From Bathymodiolus thermophilus thioautotrophic gill symbiont (GTDB lineage: Bacteria > Pseudomonadota > Gammaproteobacteria > PS1 > Pseudothioglobaceae): 64,000 nucleotides of DNA. How positions within the stretch are numbered: the first letter of the stretch is position 1; each line of letters starts with the position of its first letter. The notes beneath the pieces were generated by a model. It was not told the DNA's origin. It searched no databases and saw only the letters and a list, made by a program, of their open reading frames with translations. This document shows, piece after piece, positions 6,370 to 59,853 of the stretch. Where the stretch lies: assembly GCF_003711265.1 (NCBI RefSeq), contig NZ_CP024634.1, forward strand, positions 682,001 through 746,000, written 5' to 3'. The translations under genes were made by a program, and so were the position numbers.

Positions 6370-7412
6370 TTTAAGGTTGCGGTTGTTTTAATATCTTTAC
6401 CGACCATTCTAATGTCTTGAATGTTGAGTTCTAACTTATTATTCATTTTTTGAATGGAGAGATTCATCATAGAATTAGCATCACTGCCCATTAGTATTGG
6501 TGCTGTGTAGATGACAAATTCATCAATCAGCCTAGTTGTCACCATGGCACCAATTAAACCGGGCCCTGCCTCAAGCAAAACACTGTTAATATCTTGTGTG
6601 GCTAATTGTGTAAGAATGTCGTGTAAATCTAATTTGCCAGTGTCATTGATTTTGGTATTTTCAGGGTTAAATACTTGGGTGCTGGCATCTGTTGAAAAAA
6701 TATTAAGATGGGGGCTGGTAATTTGATTTTTGCCATCCACCACCACACGAAGTGGCGTGTTGCTTATATTGTCAAGTCGCACCGTCATTGATGGATTGTC
6801 TGCCAATATTGTGCCAGAACCCGTCATAATTGCTTGATTTTTAGCGCGTAATTTTTGCACATCAAGTCTCGCTGCCTCTCCTGTGATCCACTTGCTTTCG
6901 CCAGATGCCATGGCGGTTTTTCCATCCAAACTCATGGCGATTTTACAAGTAACAAAAGGCAATCCCGTTTCCATACGCTTTATAAAAGCACGGTTAAGTT
7001 GCTTGGCTTCATTTTCAAGCAGTCCAATGGCAACTTCAATGCCAGCAGTTTCCAGCATTGTTACCCCCTTGCCACCGACTAAGGGATTGGGGTCAAGTGT
7101 GGCGACAATTACTTTTTTAACCCCCGCATCAATAATGGCTTGCACACATGGCGGTGTTTTGCCTTGGTGGGCGCAGGGCTCTAAGGTTACATATAAAGTA
7201 GTATCGTTTGCCTGATGATTAATTTGTGCCAGCGCATTAACTTCTGCATGGGCGGCGCCAAAAGTTTGATGATAGCCTCGGGCAATAATGTCATTATTCT
7301 TAGTAATAACACAGCCTACCATAGGATTAGATTTCACACCGTATTGACCCTTATGCGCCAGTTTGAGCGCCAGCGACATACAATGTATATCATTTTTTGA
7401 AAAAGTTGCCAC
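6366..7412 (-). CDS. ribD: Bifunctional riboflavin deaminase/reductase RibD
   Basis: RibD performs the second and third steps of riboflavin synthesis: deamination of the diaminopyrimidine and NADPH reduction of the ribose side chain. The zinc deaminase motifs are HAEVNAL near 51-57 and EPCAHQGKTPPC near 78-89. The reductase domain begins at about 148 (TCKIAMSLDGKTA). The protein has 348 residues, slightly shorter than E. coli RibD, with both domains complete. It is first in the ribD-coaBC operon. Only 53 bp separate its start from the divergent recA start, so the two promoters must be packed into or overlap this gap. Confidence 0.95.
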   Translation of the reverse strand: MATFSKNDIHCMSLALKLAHKGQYGVKSNPMVGCVITKNNDIIARGYHQTFGAAHAEVNALAQINHQANDTTLYVTLEPCAHQGKTPPCVQAIIDAGVKKVIVATLDPNPLVGGKGVTMLETAGIEVAIGLLENEAKQLNRAFIKRMETGLPFVTCKIAMSLDGKTAMASGESKWITGEAARLDVQKLRAKNQAIMTGSGTILADNPSMTVRLDNISNTPLRVVVDGKNQITSPHLNIFSTDASTQVFNPENTKINDTGKLDLHDILTQLATQDINSVLLEAGPGLIGAMVTTRLIDEFVIYTAPILMGSDANSMMNLSIQKMNNKLELNIQDIRMVGKDIKTTATLK

Positions 7413-42622: not shown

Positions 42623-45600
42623 ATGCAAGTCAAAACACAGAAACAAATTACAGTATTACAAGCCAAAGCACAAAAGATTAGTAACAAGCTCAGTGAGGAA
42701 ATTGTTATTATTACTAAAGGGGTTCAACATATTCAAGTTCAAGCAGGGGTAACTTATCAATTAAATACTCAGGATTTTGATATTAATAAGTTGAATTTAA
42801 TTGCCAAAAAAGTCGGTGATGATTTAGAAGTAGCCTCAGAAGATGGTGTGATTATTTTTGACAACTATTTTGAAGTTTGTGCCAGTGATTTATCTTGCTT
42901 AGTTTCTCTACCTGCTAAAGACGGTGGACTTTATCATGTTATTGCTGACATCTTCTTTACTTTAGAAGATGGTACGCAAGTTGTTTATTTTTATGGTGAC
43001 CAATCTATTGTGTCTACTGAGTCTAGTGCGACAGATGAAACAACGCAAAGTTTTGGTGAGTTTATTGATTCAAATATTGGCAGTATAGCAGTATTTATGG
43101 TGGCAGTACTTGCGATTGCTAGTAGCGGTAGTAATAGTAGTAATAACGACAACGATAATAATACTGAATTCTCACTAAATGGCGTTTTTTCAGCAGGTAT
43201 GTACACAGGTGGTAAAGTTAGTAATGCGATTTTCATTTATGACAAAGACGGCAATCAAATGGCCAATGTTGACCTTAAGGAAGGAGGCGCTTATACTGTT
43301 TCTGTAAATGACTTAGGGTTAGGCTACAGAGCTTACACGGGTACAATTTACATTCGACTTAAAGCCTCTAATGAAATAACATTCTTAGACGAAGTGCGTA
43401 ATGCTGAAGCAACCTTGCAGAATGATCTGTATTCCATTGCTACATTTATTTCAGATTCAGTAACAGCGCATATTAATGTGCAAACTACCATTGCAACACA
43501 AGTTATTGTTGGTGCTTATATCACTGCTAGTAACGATGACAAAAAATTGATTATTGGTGCTGAGGGTTCTTTTGTCGGCATTGACAAAGAAAAAATAGAA
43601 AGACTTGAAGAAGTAACACGAAACGCACTTGATTTGGAAAGCAATATTTTTACAACAAAGGTTGATACAATTAATAGTGTCGGCGATGAAGAGGGCAATA
43701 TAAAAGCAGGCCAAGTAGCCGCCTCACTTTCAGGTGCAGTTTCAGATGGCACCAGTCTCCAAGATGTTATTGATAGTGTTGCTTATAGTATTGATAAAGT
43801 CGGCGCCTTAACAGCTGTAATAGCAGGCAAACTTACTGCTGGCTTGATCGAAGTTAAAAATAAAATGAAAACCGATGCAAGCACCAATGCTGACAATAAA
43901 GTTGCCGCAGAAGTTGCTGCTCAAAATGCAATCACCGGTATCGGTAAAAATGATTACGATAATGGTACTGCTGAATTTAAGGAGGCTAAAGATAATGCAC
44001 TTGCTAGCGCTAAAGTAGCAAAAGCAAAAGCCCTTGCCGATAAATTAAAAGTTGACGCAGCTGCCGATGCACTTGTTGCTGACACAACATTTGATGTATC
44101 GCCAATTACCAATGCAGGTTTAACTTTCTCTGCTGATACAGGAGTCAACAATGATCTTATTACCCAAACAAAGATACAAAATATTTCAACAACTCTAAAC
44201 GACTCACTTGAGACCAATGAAAGCGTTTGGCTTTCAGTTAATAACGGCAACTGGCAAAAAGGCAATGCTGTCAACAACTCCAAAGTCATTGTTTGGGACA
44301 ATGTTGATTTAGGCAGTGAAGGCATCAATATTATACGAGTAGTTGTTTCAAAAGCAAACGACGGAACCCAAGTTGACGCTAAAAAAATCAGTGCGATTGC
44401 TGCAAAAGAATACACGCTTGATGCTACAGGTTCAGCCGTAGCAAGTGTGACTATAAGTGCTACCGACAGTTCAGATGTGATCAAAACAGGTTCACTCACA
44501 GTGGGCGATAAAGTCATTGTTAGCATCGTTATGAGCGAAGCAGTAATTGTTACTGCCAATACAGATATAGATAAACCCGTCTATAAAGTTATGATTGGCG
44601 ATACCGAAAAAGAAGCAACTTATGTATCAGGCTCAGGCACAAACACATTAAAATTTTCTTACACCATCGTCGCTAATGAGACAGACAATGTTGATGGCAT
44701 TACTGCCAACGCTAACAAATTGGTATTAATGGGCTCAGGCACCATTACCGACATCGCTGGCAATGTGGCAAATCTTGCCAGTCCAGTGGCTGCTACCAAT
44801 ACGATTATTATTGACACCAAAGCCCCGAATGCACCAGCTAATTTGAAATTAGCAACTGATGATGACACAGGTTCTAATAATCATGACAATGAAACCAGCA
44901 AAACCTTCGTAACCATCATGGGCGAAGCCGAGGCAAATTCCACTGTAAAATTATTCAATGGTGATACTTTGTTGGGCTCAACTACTACTGATAACAGTGG
45001 TAATTTCAGCCAAAATATCACTTTAGCAGCAGATTTAACAAATATCACTGCAAAGGCAATTGATGCTTCAGGCAATCAAAGCATTGCCTCCGCTGTTTTG
45101 TCAATTACATTAGACACCCTGGCACCAGTACTCAGCAATGAAGTTGTAGTCAATGTTGCTACTAAAGTAGAAACCAGTGTTCAGGTTTATGATGCACAAG
45201 CAACCGATGGGGGTGACAAAGATGAGGGTGTTACTTATTCGGTTACAGGGGGTGCGAATAAAAATTTATTTGAGTTCAAAGATGATGTGGCAAAAGCAAC
45301 AGGTATTCTTACTTACAAAGATAAGCAAATGACTGAAGCTGATCATACGGTTATTATCACCGCAACTGATGTTGCTGGTAATACTAAAGAACAAACGGTA
45401 ATTGTTCATGCTAAAAACCTCTTTACCAGTGTTAACTGGACAGGTGCAACGGATGACAATTACATCGGTGCTGCTGAAAAATCAGCCGTCACCTTGTCAG
45501 GAACAATTGTAGGTGGCGAAAATACGGTTGTTATTGAAAAAATTGAGATTTTCAAGGATGGTATTCAAGTAGGCGACGATATTACCACAGGCATAATTGT

Positions 45601-47770
45601 TGACAGTTCTAGTAAAACTTGGTCATTAAATAGCCAAGTTAGCACTTCAAACTTTGCTAATTTGGCAGATGGCACTTACATCGCCAAAGTAACTATAAAA
45701 GATGGTAGCAATGCGCCTATTACTTTATCTAGTACAAGCATCACTTATGATACCTCCGCACCAATTTTAGACATTACCAGTAACAAAGCCATGGGCGTAG
45801 CCAAAGCAGATGAAGAAGTTACTTATACCTTTACCTTTAACGAAAAAGTAGTGGATTTTACACTCAGTGATATTACCATCGACAATGGCGTTATTAAATC
45901 TGGCGCTAACTTAGTGGCAGCCACAGGTACTGATGTAGGTAAAAAATGGACACTTGTTGTTATTCCTGATGCCGACAAAGGCTTGGGTACAAATATGACA
46001 GTCTCTGTTGATGCCAATAAAGTTAGAGACCTTGCAGGTAATGGTGTTGTCGAATCAAGCAACAATCAAGCCATTGACACCATGGCGCCAACTTTAATCA
46101 TTAGTGATGATAATGTAGGTGCCGTTAAAGCAGGTACAGAAGTTACCTACACCTTTATTTTTAGCGAAAAAGTAACTGGCTTTACCAAAGCAAGTATTGC
46201 TATTACCAATGGTACAATTAAAAGTAATGCGGTTTTAGTAGAAGCCACAGGTGTCGATGCAGATAAAAAATGGACACTCGTTATCACCCCTAACACTGGT
46301 ACAGATGCCGGTAGCAAATTAATAGTTTCAGTGCCAACCAGCAATAGTGGCATTACAGATATTGCAGGTAATGCTTACAGTGTCAAGGCGGCAAACAATG
46401 AGCAAGATATTGACTCTGAATCTCCAGATGCTTTCGTCAATACCATTAGTGAAATCGCTGGTACAGACTTTGTTATTAATGCCAGCGAAAAAACCAATGG
46501 CTTTACGGTTAAAGGCACCATTAGTAATGCATCAGATGGCAACAAAGTCATTATTAGTCTTAATGGAAAAAACTATGAGTCTGCTGAATTTACCTCAGGT
46601 GGAAAGGCTTGGGAAATCAATGTACCTGCAACAGATTCGGTTTCAATCACTGCAGGCAATGTGGTTGCTAAATTGATTAATTTAGCAGGCAAATCTTCTG
46701 CAGAAAAAGAACACAGTTTTGCTATTAATACTACCCTTCCAATCATTGTTGATTTCACCTCAACTACAAGCGATGGCATTTATAAAATTGGCGATACAAT
46801 CGACATCGTTGCCACTGCCAGCGAAACCTTGAAAGCGAACAGTGAAATAATATTAACCCTGAACACAGGCGCCATAGTCGCATTAACAACCTCCTCAAAT
46901 AGCACCACTTTAACGGGTACTTACATAATTGCTACCAATCAAAACAGTGAAGATCTTAGTGTTAGTAGTTTTGCACTTAGTGCAAACACGCCAGAAGATA
47001 TGGCAGGTAATGTCATGATCGCTACGGAAATCCCTATTGGCGATCATAATATTGCAAATTTCAAAGCTATTGTTATTGACACTATGTTGCCAACCTTAGA
47101 CATTGCCTTTACCGGTCTTAATATTGCCAAAATAGGCGATGAAGTTTCTTGCACCTTTACCTTTAGTGAGGTAGTAACAGGTCTTACTGAAGACGATATT
47201 GCCATTGTCAATGGCGCAGTTAAAGCCAACAGTTTAGTGGCAGCAACAGATGCTAATGCAGGCAAGGTATGGACATTTATTATTACCCCTGAAGCCAACA
47301 AGGATACAGGTACAAATATGACAGCCTCTCTTAAGGCTAACACAGTCAAAGACTCTGCAAATAATTATGTTGTTGAAACAACAAGTGGGAATCAGGCCAT
47401 TGATACCAAGGCGCCAACTAAGGCGGTCACAGGCAGTATCCTTATCAAGGATAACGATACCAACAGTGTTTATAATGAAGGCGACGAATTAATTTTTAAA
47501 TTTTCAGAAAACCTTTCTGCTAACACATTTGTTCCTACTGTTGACAATAATCATTCTTTTGGCATTGGAGTTGGTGTCTCGATATCAAACGATACTGTTG
47601 TAATAATTTTAGGCAATAATTCAAACCTAGAAATTGGTGATGTTATCTCACTACCTAGTGATGCAATTATTGATATAGCTGGTAATGCAGCAGGTGCATC
47701 AGGCAGTAATATTGAATTTACCCTCCCAAGTTTTCCAACGCCCCCGCCTGTTGATGGAACAATAATATAG
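42623..47770 (+). CDS. Giant Bap-like surface protein with Ig-like repeats, 1715 aa
   Basis: Residues 1-130 resemble the prefix domain of BapA/LapF-type biofilm proteins (EIVIITKGVQHIQVQAGV ... GVIIFDNYFE). A hydrophobic stretch (about 153-167) and a Ser/Asn/Asp linker follow. An Ala/Lys-rich helical segment lies at about 405-485. From about 610 there are bacterial Ig-like repeats, with recurring VTYTFTFSEKVTGFT, DIAGN and ID(T)KAPT motifs in at least four related copies. The C-terminus ends at PPPVDGTII with no GGxGxD calcium repeats, no LPxTG and no secretion signal visible, so export by a type I system is unproven and the gene may be 3'-truncated. AAGGAGT precedes the ATG. It probably serves adhesion or biofilm formation. 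Confidence 0.8.
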   Translation: MQVKTQKQITVLQAKAQKISNKLSEEIVIITKGVQHIQVQAGVTYQLNTQDFDINKLNLIAKKVGDDLEVASEDGVIIFDNYFEVCASDLSCLVSLPAKDGGLYHVIADIFFTLEDGTQVVYFYGDQSIVSTESSATDETTQSFGEFIDSNIGSIAVFMVAVLAIASSGSNSSNNDNDNNTEFSLNGVFSAGMYTGGKVSNAIFIYDKDGNQMANVDLKEGGAYTVSVNDLGLGYRAYTGTIYIRLKASNEITFLDEVRNAEATLQNDLYSIATFISDSVTAHINVQTTIATQVIVGAYITASNDDKKLIIGAEGSFVGIDKEKIERLEEVTRNALDLESNIFTTKVDTINSVGDEEGNIKAGQVAASLSGAVSDGTSLQDVIDSVAYSIDKVGALTAVIAGKLTAGLIEVKNKMKTDASTNADNKVAAEVAAQNAITGIGKNDYDNGTAEFKEAKDNALASAKVAKAKALADKLKVDAAADALVADTTFDVSPITNAGLTFSADTGVNNDLITQTKIQNISTTLNDSLETNESVWLSVNNGNWQKGNAVNNSKVIVWDNVDLGSEGINIIRVVVSKANDGTQVDAKKISAIAAKEYTLDATGSAVASVTISATDSSDVIKTGSLTVGDKVIVSIVMSEAVIVTANTDIDKPVYKVMIGDTEKEATYVSGSGTNTLKFSYTIVANETDNVDGITANANKLVLMGSGTITDIAGNVANLASPVAATNTIIIDTKAPNAPANLKLATDDDTGSNNHDNETSKTFVTIMGEAEANSTVKLFNGDTLLGSTTTDNSGNFSQNITLAADLTNITAKAIDASGNQSIASAVLSITLDTLAPVLSNEVVVNVATKVETSVQVYDAQATDGGDKDEGVTYSVTGGANKNLFEFKDDVAKATGILTYKDKQMTEADHTVIITATDVAGNTKEQTVIVHAKNLFTSVNWTGATDDNYIGAAEKSAVTLSGTIVGGENTVVIEKIEIFKDGIQVGDDITTGIIVDSSSKTWSLNSQVSTSNFANLADGTYIAKVTIKDGSNAPITLSSTSITYDTSAPILDITSNKAMGVAKADEEVTYTFTFNEKVVDFTLSDITIDNGVIKSGANLVAATGTDVGKKWTLVVIPDADKGLGTNMTVSVDANKVRDLAGNGVVESSNNQAIDTMAPTLIISDDNVGAVKAGTEVTYTFIFSEKVTGFTKASIAITNGTIKSNAVLVEATGVDADKKWTLVITPNTGTDAGSKLIVSVPTSNSGITDIAGNAYSVKAANNEQDIDSESPDAFVNTISEIAGTDFVINASEKTNGFTVKGTISNASDGNKVIISLNGKNYESAEFTSGGKAWEINVPATDSVSITAGNVVAKLINLAGKSSAEKEHSFAINTTLPIIVDFTSTTSDGIYKIGDTIDIVATASETLKANSEIILTLNTGAIVALTTSSNSTTLTGTYIIATNQNSEDLSVSSFALSANTPEDMAGNVMIATEIPIGDHNIANFKAIVIDTMLPTLDIAFTGLNIAKIGDEVSCTFTFSEVVTGLTEDDIAIVNGAVKANSLVAATDANAGKVWTFIITPEANKDTGTNMTASLKANTVKDSANNYVVETTSGNQAIDTKAPTKAVTGSILIKDNDTNSVYNEGDELIFKFSENLSANTFVPTVDNNHSFGIGVGVSISNDTVVIILGNNSNLEIGDVISLPSDAIIDIAGNAAGASGSNIEFTLPSFPTPPPVDGTII

Positions 47771-47813
47771 TTTCTATACTGGACAGTAGCCTTAAGGGGA
47801 TTATATTGCTCTT

Positions 47814-47844
47814 ATACCATTTTATTTTTGAAAATGGTATAAAA
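47814..47844. terminator. Hairpin between convergent genes
   Basis: TTATACCATTTT and AAAATGGTATAA form a 12-bp stem around ATTTTTG, between the convergent ends of the Bap-like gene and ftsY. It could end transcription both ways. The sequence belongs to the second dispersed repeat family. Confidence 0.5.
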
Positions 47845-47864
47845 GAAGGGTAAAGCGTGTGTTT

Positions 47865-48809
47865 TTAATCGAACAAAGCCTCAATAAATTCTTTTGGCTC
47901 AAACGGTTTTAAATCATCAATTCCTTCGCCGACGCCAATGTAGCGAATAGGGAGATTGAGTTCGTCAGCAATGGCGAATAAAACGCCACCTTTGGCGGTG
48001 CCATCAAGTTTGGTGATACTGATACCGTTAAGGGTAATGGCTTTGTTGAATGCTTTGGCTTGGTTGATAGCGTTTTGACCTGAGCTACCGTCAATAACTA
48101 GCATTGTTTCGTGTGGCGCAGTGGCATTTTGTTTGGCAATGACGCGTTTGATTTTAGCCAATTCTTGCATAAGATTGTCTTGGGTATGTAGTCGTCCTGC
48201 AGTGTCAGCGATTAAAATGTCAATATTTTTGGCTTGAGCAGACTGATAGGCATCAAAAATTACAGAAGCAGCGTCAGCACCTGTGTCTTGTGCGATGACA
48301 GGTATTTTATTGCGTTGCCCCCAAACTTTGAGTTGCTCTACAGCAGCAGCACGAAAAGTATCGCCTGCTGCTAGCATCACTGATTTCCCTTGATTTTGAA
48401 AAGATTTGGCAAGTTTGCCGATGGTAGTCGTTTTACCAGCACCATTTACACCAACCACCAAAATCACAAAAGTTTCTTGCCTCTCAATATTCAATTGGTT
48501 ATCCTCAAGAAGCAATTTCGCCAACTCATTTTTTAAAAAATCATACAAAGCATCAGAGTCTTTGAGAATTTTCCTAGAAGCATTTTTACGCACAGATTCT
48601 AAAATTTTATCGGTAGTATTGATACCAATATCAGCCGTGATAAGCAATATTTCAAGCTCTTCCAGCAAATCTTCATCAATAGATTTTTTACCCAATAGTA
48701 AGGACGACAAACCAGAACCCAGTTTTTTCCTGGATTTAATTAGTCGCTCTTTTAAAGAGGCTGAATTTTTTTCTGAATTGGTTTTATTTTTTTTAAAAAT
48801 ATTAAACAC
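47865..48809 (-). CDS. ftsY: Signal-recognition-particle receptor FtsY
   Basis: FtsY is the GTPase that receives SRP-ribosome complexes at the membrane. It has the NG domain with the P-loop GVNGAGKTTT at 120-129, DTAGRLHTQ near 205 and TKLDGTAKGG near 265. The start is GTG at 48809. At 314 residues it lacks the long acidic N-terminal domain of E. coli FtsY (497 residues) and begins with only about 20 residues before the NG core. Such short forms are known. The usual partner genes ftsE and ftsX are absent. Confidence 0.95.
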   Translation of the reverse strand: MFNIFKKNKTNSEKNSASLKERLIKSRKKLGSGLSSLLLGKKSIDEDLLEELEILLITADIGINTTDKILESVRKNASRKILKDSDALYDFLKNELAKLLLEDNQLNIERQETFVILVVGVNGAGKTTTIGKLAKSFQNQGKSVMLAAGDTFRAAAVEQLKVWGQRNKIPVIAQDTGADAASVIFDAYQSAQAKNIDILIADTAGRLHTQDNLMQELAKIKRVIAKQNATAPHETMLVIDGSSGQNAINQAKAFNKAITLNGISITKLDGTAKGGVLFAIADELNLPIRYIGVGEGIDDLKPFEPKEFIEALFD

Positions 48810-48914
48810 TATTTCTCTCTATAATTAGTAAATCTATAAAGGTGTTGATTTTACTATTCTTTACTTCGCCTTATTTCAACAATTTAAGATTACTTATTGT
48901 GTGGATAGGTTAAA

Positions 48915-49032
48915 TTAAACCAGCAATCCTCTATGGGGCAAGCCCAGTCTTAATTTTGCAACAATGTTTAATAAAATCACCAATTTGGCAAAGTTGAATT
49001 TTGCTAATCATCTATATTTATGCAAAGATCTC
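48915..49032. mobile_element. Decayed miniature element
   Basis: The right tip TATATTTATGCAAAGATCTC and the internal AAAATCACCAATTTGGC match the family. The left half is eroded. Confidence 0.55.
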
Positions 49033-49498
49033 AATTCAAAAAATAATTTATGAAAAAGATAAGGCGAGTGATTTTATTTTTGATCTTAACAAATAGAAAA
49101 AACCTATGGGAGTGTTGGAATGATTTGAAGCTAAAACTTTCAATAGAAGACAGTTGTCCGAAAAAACCGAGCAATTGAAAATAAAATTTGTTGATTAAGT
49201 TTTATAAAGCTGATATTTTAGAGACTAAAAATATTTTAAGATTAATTTAATCTGCCCTCCAAAAGCAGAGTCTTTTAAATTATGACTTACAAAAGTCAGT
49301 TAGAGAAAAATTATTTTTATGATATAATTTTGAATTGCTAACTTTTTTTATTTTTTTAAAACTTTTTTCTGATTTTTGCAGTTAAGAGGAAGATGATATA
49401 ATTTAAAACAGCATTTTAATGGCTGTACTTTATGAAGCATAGGCTTTATGGAAATTATTATAATCAAAGGTTAGCACTCTAATTTATTAAAAAATATC
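49033..49498 (+). other. Leader region of the reverse-transcriptase gene
   Basis: There is no ORF of note. Two TATAAT-like boxes occur at 49323-49328 and 49397-49402; the second has TTGCAG 15 bp upstream. Downstream of it are two hairpins: ACAGC/GCTGT at 49408-49426 and AAGC/GCTT at 49435-49446. A further hairpin TGACTT/AAGTCA lies at about 49285-49301. This leaves about 90 nt of structured leader before the ATG, which could be a non-coding RNA used by the enzyme. Confidence 0.4.
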
Positions 49499-50710
49499 AT
49501 GAATTTCTTGGAAGCATTAGAATTTGTTTTAACAAGCAAAAATCAAGCAAAAATCAAATATTCGAGTGCTAGGGGAGTCGATGGAATTAACGGTAAAAAA
49601 TTCATTGAAATGATAGACAATGAAAAGAAGTTAATTCAAAAAAAAGTTAAAAATAATAATTATAAATTTTCAAATTATAAAGAAAATTTATTGATAAAAA
49701 ATCACAATGTCACCAGACAAGTTTCGATTCCAACTCAGAGAGATAGGCTTGTTTTGCAAGTTTTATTGAAAATCTTAAGAAATAACTTTGCACTTAATGA
49801 TAACAATATAAAGAGAAAAATTATTGACATTAAAAAGAATGTTGGTAATTTTGATTCGTTTATTAAGGTTGATATTATAGAATTTTACCCTTCGATAACT
49901 CATGAAAAATTATTATTTATTCTTAGTAATAAAATAAAAGATGATTCTGCTTTAGAAATGATTAGATTAGCAATTACACAACCGACTATATCTTTAAAGG
50001 TTCCCAAGAAAAAAAGAAAATTAAAGATTAATGAAAAAGGTATTCCCCAGGGGCTTCCAATTTCTAGTTTTTTAGCAGATATTTATTTAGATAAAATAGA
50101 TAAAAAACATTTAAATGATAAAAACATTAAATATTATAGATTTGTGGATGATATTTTAATCCTTTGTAATCAGAGTAATATAGAATCCATTAAAGACAAT
50201 ATATCCAATGATTTTAAAGAAATTGAATTAAAGATTCATGAATTTACAAATAATCAAGATAAATCTCATTCTGGAAAGATTGAAGATGGATTTCAATATT
50301 TGGGATATAAGTTTACAGATACGCTTGTGAGTGTTAGAGCCTCATCAGTACAAAGGTTTTATGATAGCATAACTAAATTGTTTCACAGTTATAAGGATGA
50401 AGGCCCATCTAATGAGTTTGTTTTTGATTTAAATGCAAAAATAACTGGCATTCGTTATCAAGAAAAAACATACGGCTGGATTAATTTTTTCTCAGAAATA
50501 AATGACCATACATTATTATTTAAACTTGATGCTCATGTAAAAAAAATGCTAAATAAATATTTACAAGGTAGCAATATTGAAGTTAAGAAGTTTTCAAAAG
50601 CTATTTTTGAAATACGAAAGAAAAGTAGCAATTACATCACTAAAGATAATGTAAATAAAGAAGCCTATAAAACTATCAGATCACTAGAGGATGATATTGA
50701 TTTTTATTGA
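49499..50710 (+). CDS. Reverse transcriptase, possibly defence-associated
   Basis: The polymerase core is intact: RQVSIPTQRDRL at 73-84, D125 in KVDIIEFYPSI, GIPQGLPISS at 181-190 and YRFVDD at 213-218 with D217 and D218 as catalytic acids. FQYLGYKF at 265-272 ends the palm. The C-terminal part carries LNAKITGIRYQEKTYGWINF (311-330). There is no maturase or HNH domain as in group II introns, and I find no NAxxH or VTG retron motif. The SQ motif typical of diversity-generating elements is absent. The FVDD box and QGLPISS loop fit the abortive-infection or defence-associated (DRT) groups better; the subgroup is open. It has 403 residues and no ribosome site. Confidence 0.82.
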   Translation: MNFLEALEFVLTSKNQAKIKYSSARGVDGINGKKFIEMIDNEKKLIQKKVKNNNYKFSNYKENLLIKNHNVTRQVSIPTQRDRLVLQVLLKILRNNFALNDNNIKRKIIDIKKNVGNFDSFIKVDIIEFYPSITHEKLLFILSNKIKDDSALEMIRLAITQPTISLKVPKKKRKLKINEKGIPQGLPISSFLADIYLDKIDKKHLNDKNIKYYRFVDDILILCNQSNIESIKDNISNDFKEIELKIHEFTNNQDKSHSGKIEDGFQYLGYKFTDTLVSVRASSVQRFYDSITKLFHSYKDEGPSNEFVFDLNAKITGIRYQEKTYGWINFFSEINDHTLLFKLDAHVKKMLNKYLQGSNIEVKKFSKAIFEIRKKSSNYITKDNVNKEAYKTIRSLEDDIDFY

Positions 50711-51465
50711 TTTTTATGAAAATACAAGTAGATAAAAAATATAAATTAACAAATGGACAGTTTAAACAAAAACTCCAGCAATTTCAAACAACAATTTAAT
50801 CTTTCTTATTTTAAACCCGTTAAACTAAACAAAAAAAATCAGAGTAAAAAAAACGAACCAAATATGCATCTGCATTCAAGGCCAAATTTGTGCTTGAACT
50901 ATTGCAAAGCGAACAAATCTTAGTTCGGATTGCCAGCAAGTATAGCTCTCTTTCTCAGGAAATAAAACCGTAGAAATTATCATGGAACCCCCTAAGTCCG
51001 TTAAAGAATACAAAGAAGAACTTGTTTTTAAGTGCAGCAACAGAATATTACCCTAGTAGGTAAAGTAATAGTGGAGAAGGAGTGATTGGTAAAAAAGTTA
51101 AAAAACTTGGGTTTATCTAATCTCAAACAGTTAGTTAAACTTAAGTCATTTTCATTTTTATCTTCTTTATTCGTTAATTATCAATGTCAATTGTTAGACA
51201 TTAACAGAAAAAAACAACACTAAGTAAACCATCAAAAACCATATTGCTAAAGTGTTTGAGCGCATACTGCACTAACAACTTTTTAACACTTCTTGTATAG
51301 TTCAATTTATGAAGCCTTCACTTTTTCAAAAATAAAATGAACAATATAGTGCCAATACTTGGAATAAGAATGATCGCTAGATTGTTTGGTTTATTTTTTG
51401 AAAATGGTATAAGTGCAAAAAAAGGCCGATGAAATAGCGACCCTTGTTGTTTTTTGGTGAAAAAG
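50711..51465. other. Spacer with IS relic and repeats
   Basis: A 27-codon ORF starts at ATG 50716 (MKIQVDKKYKLTNGQ), six bases after the RT stop; whether it is translated is unknown. An IS3-type OrfA relic follows (50850-51142). At 51322-51412 lies a copy of the second repeat family, with CTTTTTCAAAAATAAAATGA and TTTATTTTTTGAAAATGG as imperfect inverted ends. Confidence 0.5.
50850..51142 (+). pseudogene. IS3-type transposase OrfA relic
   Basis: KYASAFKAKFVLELLQSEQI and VRIASKYSSLSQEI, then EPPKSVKEYKEEL and finally VGKVIVEKE-stop-LVKKVKKLGLSNLKQLV, follow the order of an IS3-family OrfA (helix-turn-helix then leucine zipper). Several stops and frame changes break it. OrfB is absent. Confidence 0.65.
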
Positions 51466-53187
51466 TTAATGATTAAAACAGCGTCTTCTTCTGATTAAAT
51501 AATAAGCGCTTAATGTCATTAACAGAATAAAGCCCATATCAAATCTAGCAGGTGCATTGGGATTGTAAACACAACCACCACCACTGTTATTGTTATTGTT
51601 ACTGTTGCTAGCAGCAGGTATTGCGATTGAAATGGTGCTTTCAACAACACCGTTAACTTGACCTTTGCCGTTGTTTTGGTCGCCGTCTGTGTCGTTTTCG
51701 CTGCCGTCTTTAATGGTGAGTTTAAGGCAGGTTGCACCTGTGGTTAGTCCAGTTTGCCAATGAGTATCGTCGGTGCAGGTGTTGCTTGTTTTGGATTGTA
51801 TGTTGTTGTCATTGATGACAAAATTAGCCCAGCCAGTTGCGGGTGAGTATTTGCGTAAGATTGCATTTGCAGGGATTGGGCTGGTGAGTTCAATGATGAC
51901 TTGGGTGGTGGCAGTGGCACTGAAGTTTTCAACAACATAGTTGTAAATGTCACCAGTGGTTAAGGTGTCTTCGGTGTTGTCGGAGAGATTGTTGTCTGTT
52001 CTGTATTTTTTCATTTGGGCAAGGGTTAGGTGGGCGGTGTCTTCGCTCATGATGCCGAGTAGTAGTCTGGTGTTTATTGGACTGGTGATTTTCTTATTTT
52101 CTCCTACAAGTAATTCGTTGTTATGGCGTCCTATTTCTTTGCTGTCGTTGATGCCGTTGTTGTTTTTATCTTTCCAATCGGTGGGATGGCTTTCAACCAA
52201 TTTGAGTTTTAGAACTCTTTCTGAAGAGTAGTCGCCTATTGTTACTTTTAATTTAATTGTTCGAGTGCCGACATCTGCATTGGGGATGAAAGTAACAAAT
52301 GCACCGCTACCAATGACGGAAAAATCAGAACTGCTCCAAGTGTAAGATGATCCCCCACTTGCTTCAGCGTAAACAGTAACACTTGTGTCTGTTTTGATAA
52401 TCAGCCGACCTTGATTTACACCTTGGGAGATAGTGAATCGCCTAATCACTGGAGCAGTATCAGTAACATCCTTAATGTTAACAGTAAGGGTTTGCTCGGT
52501 GTTTTCATTAGTGTCATTGCCAGTGGTGGCTTTGATTTTGACGGTGTAGGATTTTGTGGTGCTTTCGTAGTCGGTGTTGGTGCCGTCAAAACTTAGGGTT
52601 GCGTTGTTGGCGCCACTGAGACTGAATAAACCGCTGGTGTTTTCAATAATGCTGAAAGTGGCGGCGGTGTCGCTGGCGATGAGAGTGTGTTCGAGGTTGG
52701 TGCCTTCGTTGGTGTCAAGGGTGTTGATAGAAGTTATGGAAAGATCATGTTGCCAAATGAGGTTGAGAGTGTTTATGTAATCTAGAGAAGAGTGGCCAAT
52801 ATCATTTTCAAAATCAGAATGATAAGCATTCAAATTGATAGTAATTTCACTCAGTCCGTCGTTATCTGTAGCAGTTAATGTTGGCTCTTCCCATTGCCAT
52901 TGTGTGGCGAAACCATTGTCATTAGGATTAACTGCGGTTGGAGTACGGACTATAAGGCTGTTAGGCGAGCCTAAATAATAAGTGGTACTAGTATATAGTT
53001 TCACACTAAACTCACCCTCAATTGGCACATCAAAGTGTGAAACTGGCTTAATGCCTTGATCAAAGGTAACAAGGATAGTATTTACATTTATTCTTTCAAT
53101 TTTTGTAATTATTGGCGAAGTGGCAAACGCCTTTGAGGTAAACAAAACCAATAGAGCAGTGACAATAAAGCGATTAAATATGTTCAT
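51466..53187 (-). CDS. Secreted repeat protein with GGGC sorting tail (array unit 1)
   Basis: The signal peptide is MNIFNRFIVTALLVLFTSKAFA. An N-terminal domain (about 23-150, ITKIERINVNTILVTFDQG) is shared with unit 4. One cadherin-like repeat follows (about 160-245), then an Ig/PKD-like domain (WSSSDFS), a calcium-type loop DKNNNGINDSKE, a choice-of-anchor-U-like region and the tail GGGCVYNPNAPARFD, helix, RRRR. It has 573 residues and is the shortest unit, with fewer cadherin repeats. Such tails are cut and attached by dedicated membrane enzymes, none of which is in this window. It is the most diverged of the four units. Confidence 0.8.
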   Translation of the reverse strand: MNIFNRFIVTALLVLFTSKAFATSPIITKIERINVNTILVTFDQGIKPVSHFDVPIEGEFSVKLYTSTTYYLGSPNSLIVRTPTAVNPNDNGFATQWQWEEPTLTATDNDGLSEITINLNAYHSDFENDIGHSSLDYINTLNLIWQHDLSITSINTLDTNEGTNLEHTLIASDTAATFSIIENTSGLFSLSGANNATLSFDGTNTDYESTTKSYTVKIKATTGNDTNENTEQTLTVNIKDVTDTAPVIRRFTISQGVNQGRLIIKTDTSVTVYAEASGGSSYTWSSSDFSVIGSGAFVTFIPNADVGTRTIKLKVTIGDYSSERVLKLKLVESHPTDWKDKNNNGINDSKEIGRHNNELLVGENKKITSPINTRLLLGIMSEDTAHLTLAQMKKYRTDNNLSDNTEDTLTTGDIYNYVVENFSATATTQVIIELTSPIPANAILRKYSPATGWANFVINDNNIQSKTSNTCTDDTHWQTGLTTGATCLKLTIKDGSENDTDGDQNNGKGQVNGVVESTISIAIPAASNSNNNNNSGGGCVYNPNAPARFDMGFILLMTLSAYYLIRRRRCFNH

Positions 53188-54005: not shown

Positions 54006-56243
54006 TTAATGAGGAAATCGGCGTCTTCTTCTAATTAAATAATAAGCACTCAATGTCATTAACAGAATAAAAACTGTATCAAATCTAGCAGGTGCATTGG
54101 GATTGTAAACACAACCACCACCGCTACTACTGTTACTGCTACTATCATCATTACCACCAACAACAGGCGTTGCTATTGAAACAGTGCTTTCAATCACACC
54201 ATTAGCCTGATTACCATCAGCATCATTTTCGCCACCATCTTTAAGGGTTAGTTTAAGGCAGGTTGCACCGGTAATTAATCCAGTTTGCCAAGTGCCATCG
54301 GTGTTGTCGCAGGTATTGCTTGTGTTGACTTTAGATTGTATGTTGTTGTTACCAACCACAAAATTACGCCAGCCAGTCGCTAGTGAGTATTGACGCAATA
54401 CTGCATTTGCAGGGATTGGGGTGGCGAGTTGAATGATTACTTGGGTAGAGGCACCAGTGGCGCTTAGGCCTTCGATTATATAGTCGTAGATATCGCCAGT
54501 GGCTAAGGTGTCTTTGGTGTAGTCAGATAGGTGGTTGGCCACTCTGTATTGTTTTAGTTGATCGAGGGTTAGTTGTCCAGAATCTTCGCCCATGATGCCG
54601 GGTAATATTCTAGTACTTCCTGGACTGGTGATTTTTTTGTTTGTGCCTGCGGGTAATTCATTGTCGCTATTTCCTGATTCTTTGCTGTCGGAAATGCCGT
54701 TGCCGTTTGTGTCTGTTCGCCCATTGGGGTAGGTGTCAACTAATTTAAGTTTTAACACTCTTTCTGATGAAAAATCGCCAGCCGTTACTTTTAGTGTGAT
54801 TGTTCGGGTGCCGATGTTGGCACTTTGGGGATTGAAAACAAAAGTCTTACTGGTGCTTGTGTTAGAAAAATCGGCACTACTCCAAGTGTAAGATCCTGTG
54901 CCTGCTGAGGCGCTAACGGTAACTTCTCCACCGTCTTTGCTGATTAAAGGACCTTTGTTTTCACCTTGGGTTACGGTGAATTTGTCGATTACTGGGGCGG
55001 CGATGTAAATGGTAGTAATGGTAATGGTAAAGGGTTGTGGAGCGGAGTCGTTAGTATTGTCGCTGGCGGTGATGTTAATATTGATCGTATTTCCAAGGGC
55101 GGTAGTGATGGATTTATTGGTTCTAAGTTCATTGCCGTTGACGATTTTGAAGTTGGCGGTGTCGTTGACGGTAAAGGTAAGGGGAGTGTTGGTATCTACA
55201 TCACTGGCACTGAGGGTGCCGACTAGGGTATTGGCAGGCTGGTCTTTGATCAAGTTTACATTGCTAAGTAGAATGTTAGTTGGGGCGGTGTCGTCTATGT
55301 CGCTAACTGTGAAGTTAAAGGTTTTGTCGAATGTGTGACTGTTGGCATCGGTTACGGTAATGGTGGTGCTAAGACTGGTGGCGTTCTCGTAGTCTAGGGT
55401 GGCGTTGAGTTTGAGTTTGTCATTGTCAATGGTAAATTTGGCGTTGCTACTGGTGTAAGTGAAAGTATCGTTGGCATCGGCGTCGGTGGCGGAGAGTGTG
55501 CCTAATTCAGTGCCAGTGTTTGTATTTTCAGCAATGGTGCGGTTGCCTGTGAGGGTGATAGCGGTGGGGGTTTCGTCGTTGAGATCAACAAGGGTAACGG
55601 TGATGGTTTGAGTGGTGTTTTTATCGTCGCCATCTCCGATGGTGGCTTTGACTTTGACGGTGTAGGATTTTGTGGCACTCTCAAAGTCGGTGGTGGTACC
55701 ATTAAAGGTTAGGGTTGCGTTGTTGGTGCCACTGAGACTGAATAGATTGCTGGTGTTTTCGATAATGCTGAAAGTGGTGGCGGTATCGTTGGCGGTGAGA
55801 GTATGGGTGGTGCTTGCTGCTTTTTCATTGGCGGGGAATGTGTTGGTGGAGGTGATGGCGAGACCGGCTATACAATTGCCGTCAACACAGAGTGTGTAAT
55901 CATAAAAATCACTATAAGCTAAAAAAGTTATATTAACTTTGTCACCTGCAATCAAGATAGATGGGATGAAACTAGAGAGAGAATGTGTACAAGTACTCAT
56001 TGTATGGGTAAATTCACCATTTTGTTCAGTGGGTAAATTTAATAAACAGGTTGTTCGAATATTGTTATTGCCATTAATATTAAAACCGGAGTTTCTTGAA
56101 TCTGTTGTAATGAGTTTAAAGGTATTATTAATAAGACTTACATGAAACTCTTTGGTAGCAGGATTAGGGTTAAGTGTTGCAAACACCTGAGAAGCAAACA
56201 AAACTAATAAAGTGGTAATAATAAAGCGATTAAATGTATTCAT
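54006..56243 (-). CDS. Secreted cadherin-repeat protein with GGGC sorting tail (array unit 2)
   Basis: The signal peptide spans 1-22. The N-terminal domain (about 23-125), with four cysteines, is unique to this unit. Three cadherin-like repeats follow (about 131-222, 226-318 and 320-412, with ATDADANDTF and LDYENATS), then an Ig/PKD-like domain (415-502), the calcium-type loop DTNGNGISDSKE (511-522), a choice-of-anchor-U-like domain (523-695) and the tail GGGC (708-711), a helix (about 723-737) and RRRRR. An AGGAG site precedes the ATG. From the first cadherin repeat onward it is nearly identical to units 3 and 4. The predicted location is the cell surface or outer envelope. Confidence 0.83.
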   Translation of the reverse strand: MNTFNRFIITTLLVLFASQVFATLNPNPATKEFHVSLINNTFKLITTDSRNSGFNINGNNNIRTTCLLNLPTEQNGEFTHTMSTCTHSLSSFIPSILIAGDKVNITFLAYSDFYDYTLCVDGNCIAGLAITSTNTFPANEKAASTTHTLTANDTATTFSIIENTSNLFSLSGTNNATLTFNGTTTDFESATKSYTVKVKATIGDGDDKNTTQTITVTLVDLNDETPTAITLTGNRTIAENTNTGTELGTLSATDADANDTFTYTSSNAKFTIDNDKLKLNATLDYENATSLSTTITVTDANSHTFDKTFNFTVSDIDDTAPTNILLSNVNLIKDQPANTLVGTLSASDVDTNTPLTFTVNDTANFKIVNGNELRTNKSITTALGNTININITASDNTNDSAPQPFTITITTIYIAAPVIDKFTVTQGENKGPLISKDGGEVTVSASAGTGSYTWSSADFSNTSTSKTFVFNPQSANIGTRTITLKVTAGDFSSERVLKLKLVDTYPNGRTDTNGNGISDSKESGNSDNELPAGTNKKITSPGSTRILPGIMGEDSGQLTLDQLKQYRVANHLSDYTKDTLATGDIYDYIIEGLSATGASTQVIIQLATPIPANAVLRQYSLATGWRNFVVGNNNIQSKVNTSNTCDNTDGTWQTGLITGATCLKLTLKDGGENDADGNQANGVIESTVSIATPVVGGNDDSSSNSSSGGGCVYNPNAPARFDTVFILLMTLSAYYLIRRRRRFPH

Positions 56244-57288: not shown

Positions 57289-59853
57289 TTAATGAGAAAA
57301 TCGGCGTCTTCTTCTGATTAAATAATAAGCACTTAATGTCATTAACAGAATAAAAACTGTATCAAATCTAGCAAGTGCATTGGGATTGTAAACACAACCA
57401 CCACCACTGCTACTATCACCATTATCATTACTATCATCATTGCCACCGACAACAACAGGCGTTGCTATTGAAACAGTGCTTTCAACCGCACCATTAGCTT
57501 GATTGCCATCAGCATCATTTTCACCACCATCTTTAAGAGTTAGTTTAAGGCAAGTTGCGCCGGTGATTAATCCAGTTTGCCAAGTGCCATCGGTATTGTC
57601 GCAGGTATTGCTTGTGTTGGCTTTAGATTGTATGTTGTTGTTACCAACCACAAAATTACGCCAACCAGTTGCTAGTGAGTATTGACGCAATACTGCATTT
57701 GCAGGGATTGGGGTGGCGAGTTGAATGATTACTTGGGTGGAGTCACCAGTGGCGCTTAGGCCTTCGATTATATAGTCGTAGATATCGCCAGTGGCTAAGG
57801 TGTCTTTAGTGTAGTCGGATAGGTGGTTGGCTACTCTGTATTGTTTTAGTTGATCAAGGGTTAGTTGCCCAGAATCTTCGCCCATGATGCCGGGTAATAT
57901 TCTAGTACTTCCTGGACTGGTGATTTTTTTGTTTGTGCCTGCGGGTAATTCATTGTCGCTATTTCCTGATTCTTTGCTGTCGGAAATGCCATTGCCGTTT
58001 GTGTCTGTTCGTCCATTGGGGTAGGTGTCAACTAATTTAAGTTTCAATACTCTTTCTGATGAAAAATTTCCGGCTGTTACTTTTAGTGTGATTGTTCGGG
58101 TACCGATGTTGGCACTTTGGGGATTAAAAACAAAAGTCTTGCTGGTGCTTGTGTTAGAAAAATCGGCACTACTCCAAGTGTAAGTTCCTGTGCCTGCTGA
58201 GGCACTGACAGTAACTTCTCCACCATCTTTGCTGATTAAAGGACCTTTGTTTTCACCTTGGGTTACACTAAATTGGGCGATTACTGGGGCGGCGATGTAA
58301 GTGGCAGTGATGGTAATGGTAAAGGGTTGTGGGATGGAGTCGTGAGTGCCGTCTTTGGCGGTGATGTTAATATTGATCGTGTTTCCGAGGGCAGTGGTGA
58401 TGGATTTATTGGTTCTAAGTTCATTGCCGTTGACGATTTTGAAGTTGGTGGTGTCGTTGACGGTAAAGGTAAGGGGAGTGTTGGTATCTACATCACTGGC
58501 ACTGAGGGTGCCGACTAAGGTATTGGCGGGTTGGCCTTTGATCAAGTTTACATTACTAAGTAGAATGTTAGTTGGGGCGGTGTCGTCTATGTCGCTAACT
58601 GTGAAATTAAAGATTTTGTCTAATGTGTGATTACTGCCATCGGTTACGGTAATGGTGGTGTTAAGACTGGTGGCGTTCTCGTAGTCAAGGGTGGCGTTGA
58701 GTTTGAGTTTGTCATTGTCAATGGTAAATTTGGTGTTGCTACTGGTGTAGACAAAGGTATCGTTGGTATCGGCATCGGTGGTGGAGAGTGTGCCTAATTC
58801 AGTGCCAGTTCTTGTGTTTTCAGCGATGGTGCGGTTGCCTGTGAGGGTGATGGCGGTAGGGAGTTCGTCGTTGAGGTCAACAAGGGTAACGGTGATGGTT
58901 TGAGTGGTGTTTTTATCGTCGCCATCTCCAGTGGTGGCTTTAACTTTGACGGTGTAGGATTTTGTGGTGCTTTCGTAGTCGGTGTTGGTGCCGTTGAAGG
59001 TTAGGATGTTGTTGTGGGTGCCTCTGAGACTGAATAAGCCGCTGGTGTCTTCGGTGATGCTGAAAGTGGCGGCGGGGTTGTTGGCGGTAAGGGTGTGTTC
59101 GAGGTTGGTGCCTTCGTTAGTGTTAAGGATGTTGGTGGAGGTGATGTTAAAATTGGTGCTATCAAATGCGAAACTTGAGTAAGTAAAAATACCTTTGGTG
59201 CCGTAGATATTTGTAGCACAGAGTATATATCTCCCTGCAGGATCGTTTCGACAACTAACATTAGAATCGTTTATTTTTGGTTGCAAAACCCCTATAATTG
59301 TCTGGATTGAATCGGCGCCTGTGGAGGTATGGGTATAGTTGATGCCGTTGATGGTCATTTTGTAAACGATGCCTGCTTTGCTGGCAGGGGTTGGCGTGAA
59401 GTATATTGATTGAGCTTGTTCCGATAATCCAGTTATGCCACCAATCAAGTTGGCTTTTTCTAATAAGACATCGCTATCCAGTGCTGTTGCGCTACCACCT
59501 GTTGCGTTGAAACCGATTGCTGAATCAACGGCATCCACTAGATTTTGTTTGGTAGAGGTGCCTCCATGAATAGGAATACCGCAAGTTGCCACAAGATAGG
59601 AAGAAAACCTCCCTGATGATAAACTACACCCTGTGGAGTTGTTGCCTAGTATGGTAATGGTGTTAGAATTACCACTCGCTCCAATAAGAATGCTAGTGAA
59701 TGTCATAGATTGATGGGTTAAAGAGGCTTGTGTGTTAAGCGTGCCGTCTTGAGCATGTTGGTTTGTAGTAGTAATAAAGGTGTCTGTGGCAAACACCTGA
59801 GAAGCAAACAAAACCAATAAAGTGGTAACAATAAAGCGATTAAATGTATTCAT
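57289..59853 (-). CDS. Secreted cadherin-repeat protein with GGGC sorting tail (array unit 3)
   Basis: The largest unit, 854 residues. The signal peptide MNTFNRFIVTTLLVLFASQVFA is followed by a private N-terminal domain of about 210 residues (TILGNNSTGCS, CGIPIHGG, KMTINGINYTHTSTGADSIQ). Its linker NILNTNEGTNLEHTL matches unit 1, not units 2 or 4. Three cadherin-like repeats, an Ig/PKD-like domain, DTNGNGISDSKE, the choice-of-anchor-U-like region and the GGGC tail are almost identical to unit 2. The mosaic of shared and private parts points to recombination between units. Confidence 0.83.
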   Translation of the reverse strand: MNTFNRFIVTTLLVLFASQVFATDTFITTTNQHAQDGTLNTQASLTHQSMTFTSILIGASGNSNTITILGNNSTGCSLSSGRFSSYLVATCGIPIHGGTSTKQNLVDAVDSAIGFNATGGSATALDSDVLLEKANLIGGITGLSEQAQSIYFTPTPASKAGIVYKMTINGINYTHTSTGADSIQTIIGVLQPKINDSNVSCRNDPAGRYILCATNIYGTKGIFTYSSFAFDSTNFNITSTNILNTNEGTNLEHTLTANNPAATFSITEDTSGLFSLRGTHNNILTFNGTNTDYESTTKSYTVKVKATTGDGDDKNTTQTITVTLVDLNDELPTAITLTGNRTIAENTRTGTELGTLSTTDADTNDTFVYTSSNTKFTIDNDKLKLNATLDYENATSLNTTITVTDGSNHTLDKIFNFTVSDIDDTAPTNILLSNVNLIKGQPANTLVGTLSASDVDTNTPLTFTVNDTTNFKIVNGNELRTNKSITTALGNTININITAKDGTHDSIPQPFTITITATYIAAPVIAQFSVTQGENKGPLISKDGGEVTVSASAGTGTYTWSSADFSNTSTSKTFVFNPQSANIGTRTITLKVTAGNFSSERVLKLKLVDTYPNGRTDTNGNGISDSKESGNSDNELPAGTNKKITSPGSTRILPGIMGEDSGQLTLDQLKQYRVANHLSDYTKDTLATGDIYDYIIEGLSATGDSTQVIIQLATPIPANAVLRQYSLATGWRNFVVGNNNIQSKANTSNTCDNTDGTWQTGLITGATCLKLTLKDGGENDADGNQANGAVESTVSIATPVVVGGNDDSNDNGDSSSGGGCVYNPNALARFDTVFILLMTLSAYYLIRRRRRFSH

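What the first reader, a model, noticed from the sequence alone, without database searches (positions are those of the whole stretch)
49033..50710. Solitary reverse transcriptase with a structured, promoter-linked leader
The RT has all catalytic residues but none of the group II intron, retron or DGR hallmarks I looked for. A TATAAT box is followed by two hairpins and about 90 nt before an ATG that lacks a ribosome site. Defence-associated RTs often use an upstream non-coding RNA as template or cofactor. The conserved C-terminal block YGWINFFSEIND may define a subgroup; a two-RT system that lost its partner is possible, since the downstream flank is IS debris.
Basis: partly seen in the sequence, partly recalled or inferred. 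Interest (0 to 1): 0.65.

Follow-up and report, generated by a model that had tools for sequence, protein, structure and literature searches.

The report
Partnerless telomerase-like bacterial reverse transcriptase
This gene is a relative of a newly described bacterial anti-virus enzyme that copies a short RNA template over and over, as telomerase does, but it belongs to a small branch that seems to have kept its RNA and lost the membrane protein so far thought essential.

Summary
The RT is real and intact. It scores 1.5e-115 against RT_UG17, the RT of DRT10, published as a tripartite system: ncRNA, SLATT membrane protein, RT. The window RT groups with five homologues in one clade (100/98 support). 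No SLATT was seen beside any of the six (L019's contig ends inside its RT, so only one side was visible), and none of the six genome assemblies has SLATT_5 over cut-off (6 of 6 control genomes ring). Of 106 fetched DRT10 loci 99 have adjacent SLATT. The leader is best read as the DRT10-type ncRNA, 49336-49476: a long closing stem plus hairpins, 23 nt before the ATG. A covariance model built without the window ranks exactly that interval first in 64 kb, but weakly (E 0.4); an earlier model missed it. The RNA is well supported in relatives. Tyr403, the last residue, matches the known protein primer's position. A close relative has only 164 nt at the insertion site. Likely mechanism: protein-primed, ncRNA-templated tandem-repeat cDNA synthesis, with the cDNA or another factor replacing SLATT. 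Template, activity and defence are untested.

The parts
49301..49328 (+). promoter-like site: TAGAGA, 16 nt, TATAAT with TG before it; 7 nt before the ncRNA 5' end
   Evidence: 10 of 12 matches; such sites are as frequent in shuffles; inference from position
49336..49476 (+). putative DRT10-type ncRNA, 141 nt, ends 23 nt before the RT start
   Evidence: closing stem; z -3.3 and -3.0; 1 of 200 shuffles each; model R2, built without the window, best hit exactly 49336-49476; E 0.031 in 5 kb, 0.4 in 64 kb; not found by model R1
49336..49346 (+). P1 closing stem, 5' arm (11 bp with 49466-49476, one G-U)
   Evidence: p 0.028; p 0.0065 with span 126-150 and distance 9-26, bounds set from the relatives but wide enough to include the window; best of 44 ORF leaders examined in the window
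49466..49476 (+). P1 closing stem, 3' arm
49408..49426 (+). internal hairpin ACAGC/GCTGT
   Evidence: -4.3 kcal/mol, z -2.0
49429..49452 (+). hairpin in the position of SL5 (10 bp, loop ATAG); overlaps the direct repeat CTTTATG 49428-49434 / 49444-49450
   Evidence: -8.9 kcal/mol, z -4.1, 0 of 200; repeat p 0.085
49453..49465 (+). candidate template loop between the SL5-like hairpin and P1 (template assignment is a hypothesis)
   Evidence: position by analogy with PMC12632851; repeats not significant
49499..50710 (+). UG17/DRT10-clade reverse transcriptase, 403 aa
   Evidence: RT_UG17 1.5e-115; trees; model pLDDT 93
50147..50152 (+). catalytic D217-D218 of the VDD motif
   Evidence: invariant in 60 sequences
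50705..50707 (+). C-terminal Tyr403, candidate protein primer
   Evidence: 99 of 100 DRT10 RTs have Ser/Tyr in the last 3 residues; primer role recorded for S456/Y444 in PMC12632851
48961..49035 (.). dispersed short repeat, left flank of the cassette
   Evidence: many further matches in the window
50769..51267 (.). multi-copy IS debris, right flank of the cassette
   Evidence: matches elsewhere in the genome; IS nature judged by eye and from the copy number

Best explanation
49336-50710 is a horizontally acquired two-part cassette: a DRT10-type ncRNA followed directly by its UG17-clade reverse transcriptase, belonging to a clade that has lost the SLATT membrane protein. Most likely the RT binds the ncRNA, starts DNA synthesis from its own C-terminal tyrosine (Tyr403), copies a short template in the ncRNA loop next to the last hairpin, slips back by short homology and repeats, giving single-stranded tandem-repeat DNA joined to the protein, as DRT10 does. 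With no SLATT to act on, the repeat DNA itself (compare DRT9, whose homopolymers are described as toxic) or an unlinked host factor probably carries out or triggers the defence. Shown here by sequence: RT family, clade, missing SLATT, intact active site, ncRNA architecture in relatives, insertion site. Moderately supported: the window's own ncRNA. Inferred: template, priming, product, defence, effector.
For: RT_UG17 1.5e-115, next model 5.4e-34; all six clade members hit RT_UG17 best. One clade: 100/98 in a 36-row tree, SH-aLRT 99 in the 108-row tree. SLATT adjacent in 99 of 106 fetched DRT10 loci; the 7 without are 5 clade members and 2 cut by contig edges. No SLATT_5 at E 0.01 in 5 of 5 relatives' genomes, none over cut-off in the own genome, 6 of 6 control genomes ring. 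P1 stem ending 9-23 nt before the RT start in window, L019, L020, L022, L025. Model R1, built from 4 ncRNAs, also finds L019 (sister of the window RT) and L031 at the places predicted from stems. On those six RNAs 28 of 45 pairs have double changes, 0 of 500 shuffles reach it. R2, built from these six without the window, ranks 49336-49476 first in the window. Terminal Tyr in window, L020, L022, L025. The closest relative by ftsY has 164 nt where the window has 2,577 nt between ftsY and the next ORF. The RT is in 1 of 83 genomes of the order. ExoI gene present.
Against: R1 does not find the window's ncRNA, and R2's score there is weak (E 0.4 over 64 kb; next hit 17.6 against 18.3 bits). The A-B-A' repeats are not above chance in the window, nor with the same test in canonical DRT10 RNAs. 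L052 lacks a terminal Ser/Tyr, and neither model finds an RNA before its RT. L019's contig ends inside the RT gene, so a SLATT after it cannot be excluded locally; the relatives' assemblies may be incomplete. SLATT was essential in the E. coli DRT10 systems tested in the paper, so loss could mean loss of defence. No expression or activity data.
Confidence: 0.72

Rival explanations
1. Decaying remnant: a DRT10 locus in a genome full of insertion sequences that is no longer functional; the leader is a decaying ncRNA.
For: IS debris and repeats on both flanks; the window's RNA is AT-rich and matches the covariance models poorly; the RT tail is the shortest of the set (78 aa after GW, median 113).
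Against: RT frame open with all invariant residues; SLATT is missing across the clade, not only here; the tail is also short in L022 and L025 (87 aa), and all three keep the terminal [DE]FY.
Confidence: 0.15
2. Functional system with SLATT replaced by another partner, unlinked or differing from genome to genome (for example single-strand binding protein, which lies beside the RT in the two Sulfurimonas loci and nearby in L020).
For: SSB gene directly upstream of the RT in L022 (Pfam 3.1e-33); SSB-like frames upstream in L025 and an SSB-like ORF in L020 at 6429-6863, both recognised by eye and not scanned.
Against: No SSB-like ORF seen by eye beside the RT in the window, L019 or L052 among the ORFs listed; no shared neighbour among the ten proteins scanned and no shared small hydrophobic ORF; SSB is common on mobile elements (general knowledge).
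Confidence: 0.25
3. The leader is only an untranslated region that regulates RT expression, not an RT-bound template RNA.
For: It is directly upstream of the ATG; no template could be fixed statistically.
Against: In the sister L041 an RNA that aligns and covaries with those of L020, L022 and L025 lies before SLATT, not before the RT; in canonical loci the same architecture lies upstream of SLATT, where the published ncRNA is.
Confidence: 0.1
4. One reading: a two-RT defence system (like DRT3) that lost its second RT.
For: Drt3a model matches at 4.1e-29; an AbiP2-like RT lies elsewhere in the genome.
Against: RT_UG17 is better by 86 orders of magnitude; relatives have SLATT beside the RT. Second RTs beside the relatives were not searched for.
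Confidence: 0.02

Closest known systems
DRT10 (UG17), PMC12632851
   Same: RT family; ncRNA with long closing stem and small hairpins, 141 nt against 137; Ser/Tyr at the C-terminus; intact active site
   Different: no SLATT gene beside the RT or, by SLATT_5 search, in the genome; ncRNA directly before the RT; shortened C-terminal region; template repeat not established
DRT9 (UG28), PMC12483538
   Same: ncRNA plus RT with SLATT only occasional (passage); similar RNA architecture according to PMC12632851; RT fold Z 22.8, rmsd 3.6 over 353 residues to 9vma
   Different: RT matches Drt9 at only 1.2e-15 against 1.5e-115 for UG17; no poly-U in the window's predicted template loop
DRT3a (UG3), PMC13174585
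   Same: class 2 RT with ncRNA-templated repeats, described there as related to DRT10 (passages)
   Different: no second RT seen beside it; RT model E 4.1e-29
Group II intron RT/maturase
   Same: nearest solved fold: 6ar3_A Z 31.2, rmsd 2.3 over 350 residues
   Different: no maturase domain over cut-off, no intron RNA, RT inside the DRT10 tree

Membership tests
UG17 / DRT10 reverse transcriptase clade | RT sequence family UG17 | tested here: met
   PADLOC RT_UG17 1.5e-115; nested in the DRT10 tree
DRT10 system (tripartite, PMC12632851) | SLATT-domain protein encoded with the RT | tested here: not met
   no SLATT in the window, no SLATT_5 over cut-off in the genome, no SLATT remnant in the flanks by tblastn of 100 SLATT frames (best E 0.10); so filed as a SLATT-less variant, not as a DRT10 system
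DRT10 system (tripartite, PMC12632851) | ncRNA of about 137 nt: central stem with smaller stem-loops (in relatives L019, L020, L022, L025, L041) | tested here: met
   folds and stems, models and covariation; not found for L052
DRT10 system (tripartite, PMC12632851) | the same ncRNA in the window | tested here: inconclusive
   leans to met: stem p 0.028, fold z -3, exact interval ranks first with R2 but E 0.4 in 64 kb; not found by R1
DRT10 system (tripartite, PMC12632851) | A-B-A' template in the loop after the last hairpin | tested here: inconclusive
   repeats present, not above shuffles here or in canonical RNAs with this test
DRT10 system (tripartite, PMC12632851) | C-terminal Ser/Tyr protein primer | tested here: met
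   Tyr403 is the last residue; priming itself not testable here
DRT10 system (tripartite, PMC12632851) | tandem-repeat cDNA and phage defence | not testable with these tools
   needs expression
DRT9 | UG28 RT | tested here: not met
   Drt9 model 1.2e-15 against UG17 1.5e-115
Group II intron | maturase domain and intron RNA around the RT | tested here: not met
   GIIM 13.8 of 23 bits; no Rfam intron hit at E 1 in 47500-53000
Retron | retron RT family | tested here: not met
   retron_St85 53 of 235 bits; no retron RT among the best 25 PADLOC models
Diversity-generating retroelement | template/variable repeat pair and accessory gene | not tested
   family excluded only indirectly by the RT match

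The most novel reading that the evidence does not exclude
A natural two-component branch of DRT10, found in genomes labelled Gammaproteobacteria and Campylobacterota (one further member is labelled Bacteroidota), works with no SLATT effector: a protein-primed, telomerase-like polymerase with only its ncRNA, whose repeat DNA is itself the active agent or serves a purpose other than SLATT-mediated defence.
Probability: 0.4. Interest if true: 0.8.

Novelty: new variant of a known kind. Interest (0 to 1): 0.62.

Why it matters
The role of DRT10's repeat DNA is an open question in the paper that described the system; it proposes that the DNA controls the SLATT pore. A clade that has dispensed with SLATT but kept RT and RNA is a natural test of that idea: if ncRNA plus RT alone protects or harms a laboratory host, the DNA can act without SLATT. 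It is also a smaller telomerase-like machine (403 aa plus about 141 nt) than the published 456-aa Eco3 enzyme. Co-occurrence of UG17 with SLATT_5 was earlier given as 82%, 81% and 76% in different sets (PMC8934634, passages), so SLATT-free UG17 RTs had been counted, but I found no description of them as one clade with a retained ncRNA (searches; supplementary files not seen).

Tried and rejected
Close homologue scans with the window RT alone found nothing in genome contigs or viral contigs; the alignment-based scans did, and a clade-specific scan of viral contigs found none. Two-RT, group II and retron readings: rejected by family models. SLATT remnant in the flanks: none (best E 0.10; the script stopped with a file error after printing this, so its intended positive control did not run). 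Common small hydrophobic ORF beside the RTs: none seen. MAFFT alignment of whole upstream regions, and of all SLATT-less RNAs together, misplaced the P1 stem, so models were built from better-aligned subsets. Model R1 missed the window RNA. Template repeats: not above chance. Promoters: as many as in shuffles. The first fold of the L019 leader used wrong ends and looked unstructured (z +0.16); with the stem-based ends z is -3.9. An automatic choice of stems by fold energy picked other stems for the window and L025 than the ones used here. L052: no reliable RNA.

Sampling: genome contigs kept only the best 80 of 161 confirmed relatives, so the 106 loci are those nearest the window RT, not a random sample. 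Of 79 viral loci I used 20: left out were 22 of L107-L135 that looked like near-copies by position and identity (not checked further) and 37 weak ones from L140 on. Of 228 plasmid records 6 were fetched. In the 108-row tree 4 look-alike loci (L044, L100, L102, L104) and 2 with broken RT frames (L063, L139) were dropped; the 36 rows were my choice. One search used six loci and an E limit of 0.03 chosen, four of the six had built the model, and L099 was left out because a false short hairpin would have passed; several such false hairpins scored as high as true places, and L050 was matched on the wrong strand.

Full report
WHAT IS THERE. The RT frame at 49499-50710 (+) is intact, 403 aa. Against PADLOC it matches RT_UG17 at 1.5e-115; the next model is at 5.4e-34. 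Group II and retron models match only below their cut-offs. UG17 is the RT of DRT10, described in PMC12632851 (I read parts 1-4 of 8, which hold abstract to discussion, and passages; not the supplement): a 137-nt ncRNA, a SLATT membrane protein and the RT; the RT primes DNA synthesis from its own C-terminal Ser or Tyr and makes tandem repeats from an A-B-A' template, much as telomerase does; all three parts were needed for defence in E. coli.

THE CLADE. Alignment-based scans of genome contigs and viral contigs gave DRT10 homologues; genome contigs kept the 80 nearest of 161. For 106 fetched loci (80 genome, 20 viral, 6 plasmid) I located the RT frame and searched all stop-to-stop frames of 50 aa or more with an HMM built from five SLATT_5 proteins of plasmid DRT10 loci and refined once. 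99 of 106 have SLATT beside the RT, 91 before it and 8 after it. The seven without are L019, L020, L022, L025, L052, and L054 and L076. L054 and L076 are cut by contig edges on one side. L019's contig also ends, inside the RT gene, so its downstream side is unseen; L020, L022, L025 and L052 are seen on both sides. L022 has only a weak distant match (E 2.4e-3), not beside the RT. The window's 64 kb has none. In an IQ-TREE tree of 36 chosen RTs the window, L019, L020, L022, L025 and L052 form one clade (ultrafast bootstrap 100, SH-aLRT 98; one change of the SLATT label in 100% of 200 bootstrap trees), sister to L041, a Sulfurimonas locus with SLATT (99/98). The 108-row quick tree with distant RTs as outgroup holds the same six rows (SH-aLRT 99) nested among SLATT-bearing lineages, so loss is the simpler reading. 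SLATT_5 is not found at E 0.01 in any of the five relatives' genomes nor over cut-off in the window's genome (best 13.2 of 29.5 bits); the same search rings in 6 of 6 genomes that hold canonical DRT10. The assemblies may be incomplete, and only the SLATT_5 family was searched genome-wide.

NEIGHBOURS. I saw no shared partner. L022 has SSB before and MYG1 after the RT; L025 has SSB-like frames (by eye) before and a DarT1 toxin with its NADAR antitoxin after it; L020 has a PcfJ-like gene and an SSB-like ORF (by eye) after it; L052 stands next to a lipid A acyltransferase gene. A scan for hydrophobic small ORFs showed nothing in common.

THE RNA. In L022, L025, L020 and the SLATT-bearing sister L041 the region before the operon folds into a long closing stem (P1) with internal hairpins; on their four-sequence alignment 12 of 25 predicted pairs have changes on both sides. 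P1 ends 9 to 23 nt before the RT start in window, L019, L020, L022 and L025, with sequences that differ except between L022 and L025, which share much of it. Shuffle p: window 0.028, L019 0.005, L020 0.006, L022 0.001, L025 0.035, and 0.043 for a candidate stem in L052 that I do not trust. In the window P1 is 49336-49346 with 49466-49476. With span 126-150 and distance 9-26, bounds set from the relatives but widened to include the window, p is 0.0065; the stem is the best of 44 ORF leaders examined, and 64 of 4000 random positions (3 of 496 AT-rich ones) do as well. A covariance model R1 from four RNAs (L022, L025, L041, L020) was run on ten other loci: it matched L031 (E 0.0011) and L019 (E 0.029) at the places predicted from stems, L099, L032 and L050 likewise with weaker scores, L048 at a plausible place, along with several short false hairpins of similar score. 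On six loci, four of them its own, with a limit chosen after that, it gave the six expected hits. On this six-sequence alignment 28 of 45 pairs have changes on both sides, 10 of 12 in P1, and no shuffle of 500 reaches the observed values; the alignment was fitted to the structure, which leans the count upward. R1 did not find the window's RNA (17.9 bits elsewhere, 10.6 bits for an overlapping but different interval). R2, built from those six without the window, gave exactly 49336-49476 as the best hit of 47000-52000 (18.3 bits, E 0.031) and of the whole window (E 0.4, next 17.6 bits). On ten further loci R2 gave mixed results. I had named the window's interval earlier from the stem alone, so the coincidence of both ends counts for more than the E-value; still, the window's RNA is less well supported than those of L019, L020, L022 and L025, and I put it at about 0.8.

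TEMPLATE. The last hairpin is 49429-49452 and the loop before P1 is 49453-49465. By analogy this loop would be copied. A 7-nt direct repeat (CTTTATG, 16-nt unit) overlaps the hairpin. Neither this nor the repeats of other DRT10 RNAs stand out from shuffles in my test, so the template is open.

THE PROTEIN. AlphaFold2 gives mean pLDDT 93 and pTM 0.89. Nearest solved folds are group II intron RTs (6ar3_A Z 31.2, rmsd 2.3 over 350 residues), then G2L4 (9d4s_A Z 28.5, 3.3 over 346), DGR (8ub7_A Z 25.1, 2.5 over 304), DRT2 (9c0i_A Z 23.1, 3.0 over 325) and DRT9 (9vma_A Z 22.8, 3.6 over 353); a shared RT fold says little about function. 99 of 100 DRT10 RTs have Ser or Tyr within the last three residues; window, L020, L022 and L025 end in [DE]FY; L052 is the exception and L019, cut by its contig, was left out of that count. 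The segment from the GW motif to the end is shortest in the window (78 aa) and short in L022 and L025 (87), median 113.

WHERE IT CAME FROM. In the closest relative by ftsY (96% identity, L184) the ftsY match and the match to the window's next ORF are 164 nt apart; in the window they are 2,577 nt apart. That ORF (68.5% DNA identity) belongs to a family with several copies in the window by its look, so its orthology rests on position. The extra DNA holds a dispersed repeat (48961-49035), leader and RT, and multi-copy IS debris (50769-51267). The RT occurs in 1 of 83 genomes of the order at E 1e-40; at E 1e-50 in 3 of 398 Pseudomonadota (the window's own and two not further classified; the phylum's name is my inference) and 2 of 397 genomes of L022's phylum (L022's and L041's). 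So lateral acquisition is likely. I think, from recall and not from a call, that the host is a thiotrophic mussel symbiont of the Bathymodiolus type; PMC5581435 (passages only) describes such a genome as rich in surface proteins and phage-defence genes.

MECHANISM. Best reading: ncRNA-guided, protein-primed tandem-repeat DNA synthesis as in DRT10, with the DNA acting without SLATT. DRT9, which has SLATT only occasionally (PMC12483538, passages), is a precedent for an RT plus ncRNA system without it. The host keeps an ExoI gene; the same passages report that ExoI is needed in strains with UG17 (citing earlier work) or DRT9. The steps from RNA binding to defence are inferred.

Noticed in passing
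L002 (G000 C1:912467-915991), ORF 1162-2751 +: A second defence RT in the same genome: AbiP2-like, PADLOC 2e-168.
   Followed up: partly
L003 (G000 C1:834791-838129), 1360-1917 and 1911-2393 on the minus strand: A short RT frame, best PADLOC match retron RT type I-B (2.9e-41) over part of the profile, with another frame next to it: looks like a broken retron RT.
   Followed up: partly
window 48961-49035 and other places (23593, 53603, 57001, 60514, 42515, 9461, 34014): Short dispersed repeat of about 60-75 bp with copies in both orientations; matches also lie near ftsY in two other genomes of the genus (L186, L188); MITE-like.
   Followed up: no
L025 5248-6463: DarT1-type ssDNA ADP-ribosyltransferase with its NADAR antitoxin directly after the SLATT-less RT in Sulfurimonas.
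   Followed up: no
L074, L036, L083, L095, L085, L094, L084, L064: DRT10 loci with reversed gene order: RT first, SLATT after it, so the ncRNA would directly precede the RT.
   Followed up: partly
window 42623-47770 +, 51466-53187 -, 54006-56243 -, 57289-59853 -: Large surface-type proteins, three with bacterial Ig-like or cadherin domains, around the insertion (51466-53187 has no Pfam match).
   Followed up: no
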